DNA of 64,000 nucleotides from Burkholderiales bacterium PBB2 (lineage in GTDB: Bacteria; Pseudomonadota; Gammaproteobacteria; Burkholderiales; Burkholderiaceae_C). The stretch spans positions 62,001 through 126,000 of the forward strand of contig NKIM01000007.1 in NCBI GenBank assembly GCA_002255955.1, given 5' to 3'. The notes beneath the pieces are model-generated. The model did no database searches. It worked only from the letters and a program-made list of their open reading frames with translations, and was not told the origin of the DNA. Shown here piece by piece: positions 1,553 to 60,510 of this stretch (position 1 is the stretch's first letter; each line of letters opens with the position of its first letter). The position numbers were made by a program, and so were the translations under genes.

Positions 1553-1592
1553 GGTTTGCAGGGGGGTGTTGGTGTTGGGTTATGAGTGGTCA

Positions 1593-1686
1593 GGGTGGCT
1601 GGGCGCTCTGTTGCGCTCATGTCCTCCGGCCCGGGCTGCGCCCGTGCCTCCCCCTTGACTTCGCTCCACAGAGCACCCAGCCACCC
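1593..1686 (-). repeat. Hairpin module M1 (family shared with 60.1-60.4 kb)
   Basis: A 52-nt core at 1614-1665, read on the minus strand, begins AGCGAAGTCAAGGGGGAG, continues into a GC hairpin with a GCA loop and ends CGGAGGACATGAGCG. It is enclosed by an outer stem of 19 bp (1593-1611 with 1668-1686) in which the single mismatch is a transition. The same core occurs in opposite orientation at 1765-1816 and twice more near 60.2-60.4 kb. It lies between urtB and urtC and would be transcribed in the urt mRNA. Confidence 0.85.
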
Positions 1687-1738
1687 TTCCTTTCGGACGA
1701 CAGTGCCTTGAACCTCGCGCGCACAAGCATCGGTGGCA

Positions 1739-1842
1739 GGAAGCGGGCTTTGGCCGAGTGTCGAAGCGAAGTCAAGGAGGAGGGCGGGGCGCAGCCCCGC
1801 CCGGGGGACATGAGCGGAGGCACTCGGCCGGAGTCCGCTTCC
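1739..1842 (+). repeat. Hairpin module M2, inverted partner of M1
   Basis: The core at 1765-1816 reads on the plus strand AGCGAAGTCAAGGAGGAG, then the stem GGCGGGGC-GCA-GCCCCGCC, then CGGGGGACATGAGCG. The outer stem pairs 1739-1760 with 1821-1842, with 19 of 22 positions matching and the three differences all transitions, i.e. G.U-compatible. M1 and M2 face each other across 52 nt in which I see no conserved feature. No protein-coding signal was found in this interval, so the urtB-urtC gap (1553-1878) is essentially this element plus short flanks. Confidence 0.85.
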
Positions 1843-12680: not shown

Positions 12681-12752
12681 CAACTTCAGTTGTCTCCTCC
12701 ACCGCCCCTGGGTGGATTCCAGCCTCAGGCCTTGTGCCTGGGGCTTTTTTTT
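12681..12752 (+). ncRNA. Candidate sigma-54-dependent small RNA of about 70 nt
   Basis: Between the predicted sigma-54 start (about 12681) and a terminator T-run at 12746-12752 there is no ORF. Three stem-loops fit end to end. The first is CAAC-TTCA-GTTG at 12681-12692. The second is TCCACC / GGTGGA at about 12698-12716. The third is the terminator stem. A pyrimidine-rich TCTCCTCC lies single-stranded between the first two and could pair with Shine-Dalgarno sequences. This is inference from sequence; it could also be a processed 3' end of the chemoreceptor mRNA. Confidence 0.6.
12721..12752 (+). terminator. Rho-independent terminator
   Basis: A 10-bp stem AGCCTCAGGC / GCCTGGGGCT (one G.T pair), loop CTTGT, followed by at least seven T. 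It ends both the chemoreceptor transcript and the candidate small RNA. Confidence 0.9.
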
Positions 12753-12775
12753 GAGCAGGCTGGATGGCGTTCGGC

Positions 12776-13366
12776 ACAAAGCAGAACGTCGTCTCGTTGA
12801 TCGTTCTCGCTGCGGCGTCTCGGCCCGCCGCCGGGCTCATGGTTCGCGGGTCGGCACTACGAGCCGACTGCCCTCGGTGCTCTCTCCGCGGCTCAGCGGC
12901 GCCAATCTCCCTCCGTTCGCTGCGCTCACTGTGGTCAAACAGTGGCGCCGAGTCAGCGCTTGAAGCGCGTGAGTACACGCGCCTGAGCCGCTCCGCTGCG
13001 CTCTCGGCCGCGCACAAATCGCCCGTCGGCGGGCCGAGCCACCTTCGAATTGCGCGTTCTCCACCGTCGCGGGGCAGATCGATCGCGATGCAAGCGCCCT
13101 GCAGCCTGTGCCGCTGCCGGGCGATTTGTGCAGGGCCGAGCAGCACAGCGCATCGGGGCGCGCACGTACTCGTGCGCTTCAAGTTCTGACTTGGCGCTTC
13201 TGTCTGAACGAAGCGAACGCAGGGAGCGAAGTGAGTTATGCGCCAGCCCCGAGGCGCGAGCAGCGCAGGGAAGGTCGGCCCGCCAGGGCCGACCCCGGAA
13301 CCATGAGCCCGGTGGCGGCACGGGCTGCAGGGCCTCACGAGCAAAACCAAAGGCGGCTCTGTGCCG
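12776..13366. repeat. Large imperfect inverted repeat, non-coding
   Basis: Two related arms of about 200 bp lie in opposite orientation: about 12826-13025 and about 13118-13313. Shared blocks in mirror order include GCTCATGGTTC / GAACCATGAGC, a GTCGGC...GCCGAC mini-hairpin in each arm, CGCTTGAAGCGC-like / GCGCTTCAAG, and GCACAAATCGCCCG / CGGGCGATTTGTGC. Weaker similarity continues to 12776 and 13366. The mini-hairpin next to CATGAGC resembles modules M1-M4. ORFs through it are short, run in many frames and look like no family I know. No transposase or integrase is present. It fills the 12754-13382 gap. Confidence 0.8.
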
Positions 13367-39557: not shown

Positions 39558-40109
39558 ATGCACCACCGCACACAGCCCCGCCCCGTCCTGGTTTTGAATG
39601 GCGCGGCCTGGGCTGCCGTGCTGGTGGGGCCGTTGCTTGCCATGCCCCTGGCTGCACAGGCCGAGACAGAGACGCGCAGCGCCCAGGTGTACCGCTGTGG
39701 CCCGCAGGGCCGCGACTTGCGCGACTCCCCTTGCCCCGAGGGCCGCGAGCAAGCCCCCAAGACGATCGCCTTCGATCAGCCCAGCGAGGCCGACCGACGC
39801 GCCGCTCAAGCCCTGGCCAAAGACCATGCGCGCCGTGCCCGCGAGATGGAAGCCCAACGCCTGAAAGCCGAGGCCGACGCGCAGCGCCGGGCGGCGCCGG
39901 CCATCGGCATCCATGGCCGCGGGCAAGCGGCCTCGGCGCCGCAACAAGCCAAATCCACACAGCCGCCTCAGCCCAAAGCACCCAAGCAGCCCAAGGCGCC
40001 AAAAGCGCCCAAGCCCTTGAAACCGATCACGCCGGCGGGGCTCCAGACGGCGCCGCAGCCCCTGCCGAGCGGTGCCAAGCCCGGCCGGGCCGCTTCGGCA
40101 GCAAGCTAG
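39558..40109 (+). CDS. DUF4124-like exported protein
   Basis: A 183-residue protein with a signal peptide (hydrophobic about 16-35, cleavage near AQA). A short DUF4124-like motif follows (QVYRCGPQGRDLRDSPCPEG; two Cys likely joined by a disulphide). A helical Ala/Arg/Glu-rich segment leads to a Pro/Lys/Gln-rich low-complexity tail (about 125-183). Its function is unknown; such proteins are common and scattered in betaproteobacteria. Its stop codon overlaps the -10-like TAGAAT (40107-40112) that probably drives the B12 riboswitch transcript. Confidence 0.75.
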   Translation: MHHRTQPRPVLVLNGAAWAAVLVGPLLAMPLAAQAETETRSAQVYRCGPQGRDLRDSPCPEGREQAPKTIAFDQPSEADRRAAQALAKDHARRAREMEAQRLKAEADAQRRAAPAIGIHGRGQAASAPQQAKSTQPPQPKAPKQPKAPKAPKPLKPITPAGLQTAPQPLPSGAKPGRAASAAS

Positions 40110-40119
40110 AATGCCCCTC

Positions 40120-40365
40120 GTTGGTGCTCGTGCAGGCATTGCGTCTTGCACAGTTAAACGGGAATCAGGAAGGCGCGCTGCCACGCTCGCAAGCAAGCCC
40201 AACCTGAGCTGTCCCCGCAACGGTAAGTGAACGAAGCCCTGGCCACTCGCCTCATCGCGACGGCCGCCAGAGCGCTTCAAGCGCTGTCCTCAGTCCACTG
40301 AGACCCCCGGGTTTTGGGAAGGACACAGCCGCTGAAGTTCACCAGCCCGGATACCGGCCAACAAC
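40120..40365 (+). ncRNA. Cobalamin (AdoCbl) riboswitch
   Basis: B12-box landmarks appear in order: GTTGGTGCTCG (P1/P2 side), AAACGGGAATCAGG (40156-40169), the highly conserved GCTGTCCCCGCAACGGTAA (40208-40226), GGGAAGGACA (40316-40325), and the 3' CAGCCCGGATACCGGCC (40343-40359). It precedes btuB and the long cob/btu run. High cobalamin is expected to shut off expression. Confidence 0.95.
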
Positions 40366-40422
40366 GTGGTGCGCCGCGTCCCCTGCCCCTCAACGGGCGG
40401 GAGCTGCAGCACATCGTTCCAC

Positions 40423-60026: not shown

Positions 60027-60138
60027 GACGAGCTTTCGCGAGAGAGAAAAAAGAGACGTGACGAGCAGACGGCGGTCTGATCGACCTGGAATTGGCAAGA
60101 ATCGGCACAGAGCACCCGCTGAAGCTCGGGCTTGTGCC

Positions 60139-60236
60139 AAGGGGTGTCGGGCAAGTGCTTCCGCTCATGTCCTCCGGCCTGTACTGCGCACAGGCCTCCC
60201 CCTTTACTTCGCTTCAGCACTCACCCAACACCCCTT
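60139..60236 (-). repeat. Hairpin module M3 (family of M1/M2)
   Basis: The core at 60162-60213, read on the minus strand, is AGCGAAGTAAAGGGGGAG, then stem GGCCTGT/ACAGGCC, then CGGAGGACATGAGCG: the same 52-nt design as M1. The outer stem 60139-60158 with 60217-60236 matches at 17 of 20 positions, and all differences are transitions. It lies inside the his operon. Confidence 0.85.
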
Positions 60237-60293
60237 GTCAGATCCACCGCTCGGCGTTTTCGCCGAAGGAGCAAGGCCTCGCTGGATCGGGAC

Positions 60294-60449
60294 GGCTGGG
60301 TGCTCTGCGAAGTGAAGTCAAGGAGGAGACCCCAGCCGTAGGCTGGGGTCGGGGGACTGAGCCCGGACTCAAACAGTCCTGAGGACTGTTTGTGCCTGGC
60401 GAAGGGCTGGGCCGCCGGCCCAGGCATGAACGGAGCAGAGCGCCCAGTC
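60294..60449 (+). repeat. Hairpin module M4, inverted partner of M3
   Basis: The core from 60311 reads AGTGAAGTCAAGGAGGAG, stem ACCCCAGCC-GTA-GGCTGGGGT, then CGGGGGACTGAGC. The outer stem pairs 60294-60308 with 60435-60449 (13 of 15, differences are transitions). Its sequence GGCTGGGTGCTCTGC is nearly that of the M1 outer stem. Two further hairpins, AAACAGTCC-TGA-GGACTGTTT (60371-60391) and TGGGCC-GCC-GGCCCA, are added on the right. With M3 it fills the hisA-hisF gap; 60450-60510 shows nothing recognisable. Confidence 0.82.
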
Positions 60450-60510
60450 GGCCAGATCAACAACCGACCCAAGGGCTGCCTCGTACCGTCAGCCGACGCA
60501 GACTCGTGCT

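What the first reader, a model, noticed from the sequence alone, without database searches (positions are those of the whole stretch)
1593..1842. A 52-nt hairpin module in inverted pairs inside the urt operon
Seen directly: two copies in opposite orientation between urtB and urtC. In both, a fixed left part AGCGAAGTCAAGGRGGAG and a fixed right part CGGRGGACATGAGCG flank a stem whose sequence differs but still pairs (GGCGGGGC/GCCCCGCC versus GGC-CGGGC/GCCCG-GCC). Each is wrapped in a further 19-22-bp stem whose mismatches are all transitions. Variation that keeps pairing suggests selection on folded RNA or single-stranded DNA. The left part contains a near-perfect Shine-Dalgarno sequence, and the right part ends in an ATG, so a switchable translation signal is one possibility. 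A mobile repeat (REP/BIME-like) is the other. I know no named family with this design.
Basis: seen in the sequence. Interest (0 to 1): 0.85.

Follow-up and report, generated by a model that had tools for sequence, protein, structure and literature searches.

The report
Paired DNA-type hairpin repeat in Burkholderiales
Many bacteria of one large family carry a short repeated DNA element, usually as two facing copies between genes, whose stem sequences change freely while the folded shape is preserved on each DNA strand; what protein reads that shape is unknown.

Summary
The 52-nt core plus a 20-bp outer stem (P1) is a repeat module. A covariance model finds it in 140 of 299 sampled genomes of the family (71 of 126 genera), mostly as divergent pairs (84 of 101) and mostly intergenic. 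Covariation is massive: 32 of 36 pairs change on both sides, score 0.728 against 0.194 shuffled.

Three results favour a folded single DNA strand over mRNA. Stem mismatches are G·T rather than A·C on the purine strand of both pair members (336 against 29), also in modules antisense to their operon. The inner loop is the DNA mini-hairpin type, GNA or GNNA, in 125 of 184 hairpins (mirror type 2). At one orthologous site (pccB-type to pccA) both modules keep pairing through compensatory changes.

The SD/ATG switch is not supported: the ATG is a base-paired part, lost when its partner changes. The layout is REPIN-like, but the GTAG and RAYT tests fail; two module-rich genomes have no detected Y1 transposase. 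No Rfam family matches. Identity with the published BRE repeat could not be tested. The reading protein and the mode of spread are unknown.

The parts
1590..1689 (-). module A-left, short form: P1 outer stem, core 1614-1665, inner hairpin P2
   Evidence: R1 104.1 bits, E 2.3e-21; DNA fold z -6.2 on this strand, -4.8 on the complement
1690..1740 (.). spacer between the two divergent modules
   Evidence: between the R1 matches
1741..1840 (+). module A-right, short form: P1, core 1765-1816, P2
   Evidence: R1 97.5 bits, E 6.9e-20; DNA fold z -5.9 on this strand, -4.5 on the complement
60138..60237 (-). module B-left, short form: P1, core 60162-60213, P2
   Evidence: R1 91.6 bits; DNA fold z -6.4 against -4.2 for the complement
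60285..60458 (+). module B-right, long form: P1, core, P2, plus extra arms P3 and P4
   Evidence: R1 44.2 bits over 60287-60382; row 1 of long-form alignment A2
60357..60424 (+). 68-nt extra arm of the long form (hairpins P3 and P4) between GGGGGA and CATGA
   Evidence: an arm at the same point in the 16 other rows of A2, all from relatives of the genus, with two-sided changes; absent from the same site in relative G009
60103..60117 (+). left end of the 'shell' (CGGCAC...) around element B
   Evidence: same kind of shell around other inserts at orthologous sites
60474..60488 (+). right end of the shell around element B

Best explanation
A dispersed, chromosomal, intergenic repeat that acts as folded DNA. 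Each module is one strand folded into: a 20-bp outer stem of nearly free sequence (P1); a purine-rich internal loop with fixed bases that appears to form non-canonical and Watson-Crick pairs (G·A, A·G, A-T, an unpaired A, GTC/GAC, and a coupled A·G or G·A pair inside GGRGG/GGRGG); and a GC-rich stem usually closed by a C(GNA)G DNA mini-hairpin loop (P2). Two modules usually sit divergently about 100 nt apart, so each strand of the duplex carries one. Shown: the anatomy, the covariation, the strand preference and the retention at one orthologous site. Inferred: the fold forms when the DNA is single-stranded or extruded, and a hairpin-specific DNA-binding protein reads the fixed internal loop. 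That protein could be a host architecture or repair factor, or the enzyme that once copied the element. P1 and P2 are held by shape more than by sequence. Spread inside genomes is inferred from copy number and patchiness; the enzyme is unknown and, in at least two module-rich genomes, no RAYT was detected.
For: Covariation: 93.4% of cells paired, 32 of 36 pairs with two-sided change, score 0.728 against 0.194 shuffled and at most 0.144 slid (83 rows); with the 11 hand-omitted modules back in, 93.6% and 32 of 36 (94 rows). Strand: in 83 distinct divergent pairs, P1 mismatches are G·T 156 and 180 against A·C 17 and 12 for left and right members; at 27 co-directional sites sense 59:5, antisense 41:3. 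Loops: GNA 109 and GNNA 16 of 184 against TNC 1 and TNNC 1; control hairpins in the same loci have GNA in 12 of 326 triloop readings. GNA/GNNA loops make extraordinarily stable DNA mini-hairpins (PMC4686876, passages). Site between a carboxyltransferase gene and pccA, 7 loci: two-sided changes at 10 of 20 (sense) and 12 of 20 (antisense) P1 positions, G·T:A·C 19:1 and 14:1. Core coupling: A/G 154, G/A 24, A/A 7, C/G 1, G/G 0 of 186. Arrangement: 84 of 101 distinct adjacent pairs divergent. Location: 15 of 120 clusters mostly coding against 107 of 120 random placements.
Against: No biochemistry and no partner protein. RNA folding also favours the purine strand, and G·U is as natural in RNA as G·T in DNA. 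Transcripts of both strands could mimic the strand result. GNA triloops also occur in RNA (recalled). The loop control used perfect stems and is not exactly matched. Covariation counts sequences, not events, and all are related copies. The pcc retention could in part be re-copying. No target-site duplication was established. The search for an associated enzyme was partial: I looked at the 25 largest ORF clusters, and the largest, a chained cluster of 232 ORFs from 87 loci, was not resolved.
Confidence: 0.55

Rival explanations
1. RNA-level element: the module is a cis-acting or processed structured RNA in intercistronic mRNA (stability, differential expression), tolerated in both orientations.
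For: Fold is stable as RNA; most classified sites lie between co-directional genes (43 of 68); the core resembles a perfect SD; the long form looks like a complex structured RNA.
Against: Antisense modules show the same purine-strand G·T preference (41:3) as sense ones (59:5, sites from the first gene caller) and the same kind of compensatory changes at the pccA site. Canonical cores are not biased to the sense strand outside the pcc cluster (8 against 5, 8 ties; the six pcc loci in that count all have the more canonical core on the sense strand). Loops are GNA/GNNA, with 7 GNRA and no UUCG. No longer ORF follows the ATG.
Confidence: 0.2
2. A canonical REP/REPIN mobilised by a RAYT (Y1 HUH transposase).
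For: Inverted doublets, intergenic, hairpins, few between divergent genes (4 of 68), as described for REPs and REPINs (PMC3116915, PMC3733652, passages).
Against: GTAG/GTGG at no offset above 9% and CGTC at none above 4% of 186 modules. 41 fetched Y1_Tnp loci carry no R1 match. One own-genome Y1_Tnp gene (L023) has a GGGGTCAG flank, like the GGGGWSAS TIRs of PMC3733652.
Confidence: 0.05
3. It is the already published Beta-proteobacterial repeat element (BRE; Hot 2011), about 90 bp, in Bordetella and Comamonadaceae.
For: Similar size, GC content and hosts (Polaromonas, Rhodoferax, other Comamonadaceae), intergenic, mobile-like (PMC3110155, section 14 read).
Against: BREs are reported in tandem with few or no bases between and were counted at over 70% identity; module stems, about 60 of 100 nt, are poorly conserved in sequence, and modules are mostly divergent with about 100 nt between.
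Confidence: 0.12
4. Ordinary MITE: a passive passenger of a DD(E/D) transposase acting on the outer CGGCAC...GTGCCG ends.
For: In the own clade the pair sits inside a shared shell that at orthologous sites holds other hairpin inserts; shell and insert are absent from more distant relatives at two sites.
Against: No good shell was found around window element A and none is evident outside the stems of the seven pcc elements (by eye); a passive passenger would not be expected to keep strand-specific compensated stems at an orthologous site.
Confidence: 0.1

Closest known systems
REP / BIME / REPIN with RAYT (TnpA-REP)
   Same: Intergenic imperfect hairpins in inverted doublets, strand-specific folded DNA as the form that is recognised, few between divergent genes.
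   Different: No GTAG or CGTC tag; about 100 nt with a bipartite purine internal loop; nearly sequence-free stems; two size forms; no RAYT link found; retained at one orthologous site in several genera.
Integron attC sites
   Same: Recognised as a folded single strand with conserved shape and variable sequence (recalled).
   Different: R boxes in both flanks in only 2 of 186 modules.
Beta-proteobacterial repeat element (BRE)
   Same: Size class, hosts, intergenic, uneven copy number (PMC3110155, section read).
TIRtrons / TIRYT families
   Same: Palindromic TIR repeats, some in dimers, predominant in species without REPs (PMC3733652, passages).
   Different: Modules do not flank the 41 Y1 transposase loci examined.

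Membership tests
REP/REPIN | GTAG (or GTGG) tetranucleotide at the hairpin foot, or CGTC tag | tested here: not met
   highest frequency at any offset 9% (GTRG) and 4% (CGTC) of 186 modules
REP/REPIN | cognate repeats flank a RAYT gene | tested here: not met
   0 R1 matches at E<=0.1 in 41 fetched Y1_Tnp loci, up to 1.5 kb each side; not every Y1_Tnp hit (notably in G017) was fetched
REP/REPIN | a RAYT gene in genomes where the repeat is abundant | tested here: not met
   G182 and G196 have no PF01797 match at E 0.001; 7 of 9 module-bearing genomes tested have one
REP/REPIN | inverted doublets at short distance | tested here: met
   84 of 101 distinct adjacent pairs are (-,+), 83 of them 75-230 nt apart and one 2222
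REP/REPIN | extragenic | tested here: met
   15 of 120 clusters mostly inside a home-made gene call against 107 of 120 random placements
any Rfam family | match to a covariance model | tested here: not met
   no match over the window modules up to E 10; seven long-form loci give no match at the module up to E 1
integron attC | RYYYAAC and GTTRRRY boxes in the arms | tested here: not met
   2 of 186
BRE | sequence of the ~90-bp repeat | not testable with these tools
   sequences only in a figure and a supplement; supplements not available
BRE | tandem head-to-tail copies with few bases between | tested here: not met
   10 of 101 distinct adjacent pairs are same-strand, 106-3623 nt apart
MITE | terminal inverted repeats and target-site duplication | tested here: inconclusive
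   shell ends in the own clade; no duplication established
translation start signal | open frame or conserved start codon | tested here: not met
   median 45 against 47 codons in frame +2; ATG lost in G-C versions

The most novel reading that the evidence does not exclude
A large family of natural structured single-stranded-DNA motifs (short and long forms) that is selected as DNA on both strands at fixed chromosomal sites, read by an unknown hairpin-specific protein, and so performs a host function in genome maintenance or nucleoid organisation rather than only spreading selfishly.
Probability: 0.3. Interest if true: 0.85.

Novelty: new variant of a known kind. Interest (0 to 1): 0.62.

Why it matters
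Covarying hairpins in intergenic DNA are usually read as RNA. This family gives a test case in which three signs (G·T on the purine strand of both pair members, DNA mini-hairpin loops, compensatory changes in antisense copies) point to DNA. It occurs in 140 of 299 sampled genomes of a large family, sits in core operons (urt and his in the window; pcc and near a RuBisCO gene in relatives) and has no known reading protein, so finding that protein would reveal either a copying enzyme or a site-specific host factor.

Tried and rejected
Rejected: RAYT mobilisation; GTAG/CGTC REP and attC; translation switch; Rfam RF02278, which matches 12691-12751 and not the modules. An autonomous element with its own enzyme was not found: the 25 largest clusters of neighbouring ORFs showed recurrent operon contexts, but the largest (232 chained ORFs) was not resolved, and wider-spaced modules enclosed toxin or Fic genes. 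No use: counting the A·G/G·A core pair with the pair tool, which knows only standard pairs. A first gene-context count put 45 clusters in genes because of spurious ORFs, one of them known to be intergenic; a stricter caller replaced it. A first comparison of core mismatches (sense 0.48, antisense 1.67) was an effect of the pcc cluster; without it 8 against 5 with 8 ties, p 0.58. A loose shell pattern had too many background matches to count. A first count of adjacent pairs (90 of 108) contained repeated views of some sites; recounted once each as 84 of 101.

At most 20 or 13 candidates per genome were scored, so copy numbers are lower bounds. 247 modules were reduced to 186; of the 94 with the two commonest core lengths I aligned 83, leaving out 11 by hand; all 94 give the same result. 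In the pcc set I left out an eighth locus, L087, which has a single module there and a pair elsewhere. Eight literature searches looked for earlier descriptions; they cover open-licence PMC papers only. The sequence-string search listed 6 papers, none on bacterial repeats by title.

Full report
Observation. In the own genome a split pattern of the core has 16 exact matches and the reversed control none. Exact matches occur in 12 of 39 genomes, the own one included; in at least 119 stretches of genome contigs, mostly Comamonadaceae-type Burkholderiales plus Luteimonas, a gammaproteobacterium (scan stopped at its limit); and in 1 stretch of viral contigs. A BLAST search with the window element, of low sensitivity because only the core is conserved, finds part of it in 2 of 72,556 plasmid records, both Variovorax megaplasmids, and in no phage record of 50,697. 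The genus includes a MAG named Paucibacter toxinivorans, inferred because contig G013:C119 and record CAMDHE010000119.1 have the same length.

Anatomy. From 186 non-redundant modules the outer stem P1 occupies positions 5-24 outside the core; the stem score is 46.6 on average against 21.1 when right arms are swapped between modules. On 83 aligned modules 93.4% of cells pair, 32 of 36 pairs have two-sided changes, and the covariation score is 0.728 (shuffled 0.194, slid at most 0.144). All 94 modules of the two commonest core lengths give 93.6% and 32 of 36. The conserved bases lie mainly in the internal loop between P1 and P2. There the third base of GAA and the T of ATGA are A-T in 169 and G-C in 17 of 186, so the ATG is lost in the second class; the first pair outside the core is C-G 133, T-A 23, G·A 22, G·G 8; and the middle bases of the two GGRGG runs are A/G 154, G/A 24, A/A 7, C/G 1, never G/G. 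These are counts of sequences, not of independent events. The fourth window copy is a long form: 68 extra nucleotides make hairpins P3 and P4, and 17 rows (the window and 16 from relatives of the genus) show 29 of 44 pairs with two-sided changes, score 0.426 against 0.173 shuffled and at most 0.119 slid.

Which strand, and RNA or DNA? Of 101 distinct adjacent pairs, 84 are divergent, 7 convergent and 10 same-strand; 83 of the 84 divergent gaps are 75-230 nt, one is 2222. So in most elements each strand of the duplex carries one purine-strand module. In 83 such pairs P1 mismatches are G·T 156 and A·C 17 in the left and 180 and 12 in the right member; at 27 co-directional operon sites they are 59 and 5 in sense and 41 and 3 in antisense modules. 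Selection for an mRNA fold would not be expected to keep the purine strand foldable in antisense copies. The purine strand of the three window modules folded also folds better than its complement with DNA parameters. The P2 loop is GNA in 109 and GNNA in 16 of 184 hairpins, TNC or TNNC in 2 (2 of 186 modules had no hairpin call). In 777 other perfect hairpins of the same loci 163 have triloops and GNA makes up 12 of 326 triloop readings, against 148 triloops in the module set. GNA and GNNA loops on G-C pairs are described as extraordinarily stable DNA mini-hairpins (PMC4686876, passages seen). The control requires perfect stems of at least 7 bp while the module call does not, so the two are not matched exactly. 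In the long form the P3 and P4 loops are also triloops in most rows, but not of the GNA type. I read these facts together as favouring single-stranded DNA. RNA is not excluded: RNA folding shows the same strand preference for the two modules tested and no transcript data are at hand.

Retention and location. Upstream of pccA, seven loci (two titled Hydrogenophaga, one Polaromonas, four less precisely named MAGs) keep both modules. pccA is confirmed by Pfam in L107 and by 75-97% protein identity in the other six; the gene before it is a carboxyltransferase (pccB-type) in the two loci tested. Cores stay nearly fixed while P1 changes on both sides at 10 of 20 positions in the sense module and 12 of 20 in the antisense module, with G·T to A·C of 19:1 and 14:1; swapping right arms among orthologs lowers pairing from 96.4 to 87.7% and from 97.9 to 80.8%. 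With a home-made gene caller 15 of 120 clusters are mostly coding against 107 of 120 random placements; of 68 classified intergenic sites 43 are co-directional, 21 convergent and 4 divergent; 29 lay at contig edges and 8 too far from genes to class. At urtB-urtC the pair or part of it is found in six genomes of the genus and not in the ten others whose flanks were both found; at hisA-hisF it is seen in the own genome and G009, while the other relatives aligned appear empty (part of that output was cut).

Distribution. With R1 at E 1e-5, 9 of 200 genomes sampled across the order match, in three families, and 140 of 299 in the own family, 71 of 126 genera.

Known families. No Rfam match up to E 10 at the window modules and none at the modules of seven long-form loci up to E 1. 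GTAG, CGTC and attC tests fail. REPINs and TIRtrons were compared from passages of PMC3116915 and PMC3733652, TnpA-REP strand recognition from passages of PMC8266576. The Beta-proteobacterial repeat element (PMC3110155, section 14 read in full) is the one published repeat found that could overlap; its sequence is not in the text, so this stays open and lowers the novelty claim.

Wider picture in the own clade. At three of ten own-genome sites examined, relatives G009 or G002 have the same outer shell but a different long hairpin inside, while G007 and G012 lack shell and insert at two of these three; at a fourth site G002 has a module pair too. A third kind of insert with the same shell lies in the window at 12772-13366. 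So several hairpin inserts share one set of ends in this genus. How content is exchanged is unexplained.

Verdict. A real, widespread, strand-specifically folded repeat, most likely acting as DNA, REPIN-like in layout but not a member of the REP/RAYT system by the tests made. The protein that reads it and the way it spreads are unknown.

Noticed in passing
window 12772-13366: A 595-bp palindromic element of another type with the same CGGCAC...GTGCCG ends; by eye, related copies on own-genome contigs C13 (two), C50, C56, C77 and C86; it contains several long inverted repeats.
   Followed up: partly
L318 and L330 (G009), L333 (G009) and L313 (G002), at sites orthologous to L012, L014, L015: At orthologous sites the same shell holds a different long CGCAGAG/CACAGAG-type hairpin instead of the module pair, as if the content were exchanged.
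   Followed up: partly
window 12691-12751 (+): Match just over threshold to Rfam RF02278, Betaproteobacteria toxic small RNA, directly beside the 595-bp element.
   Followed up: no
L235 3877-4161 and 5167-5451; L236 2720-3004: Module arrays in two relatives lie next to BrnT-type (PF04365), RelE-type and ParE-type toxin genes.
   Followed up: partly
L174 5471-5570: The only viral contigs match is at the end of a contig whose ORFs look like a filamentous phage, beside an HNH-like ORF (by eye, no family search); it may be host flank.
   Followed up: no
L099, L134, L068, L092, L135, L139, L163: These loci share neighbouring ORF clusters and modules; a RuBisCO large-subunit N-terminal domain was confirmed by Pfam in L099 only.
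   Followed up: partly
window 40105-40376 (+): Cobalamin riboswitch (RF00174, 60 bits).
   Followed up: no
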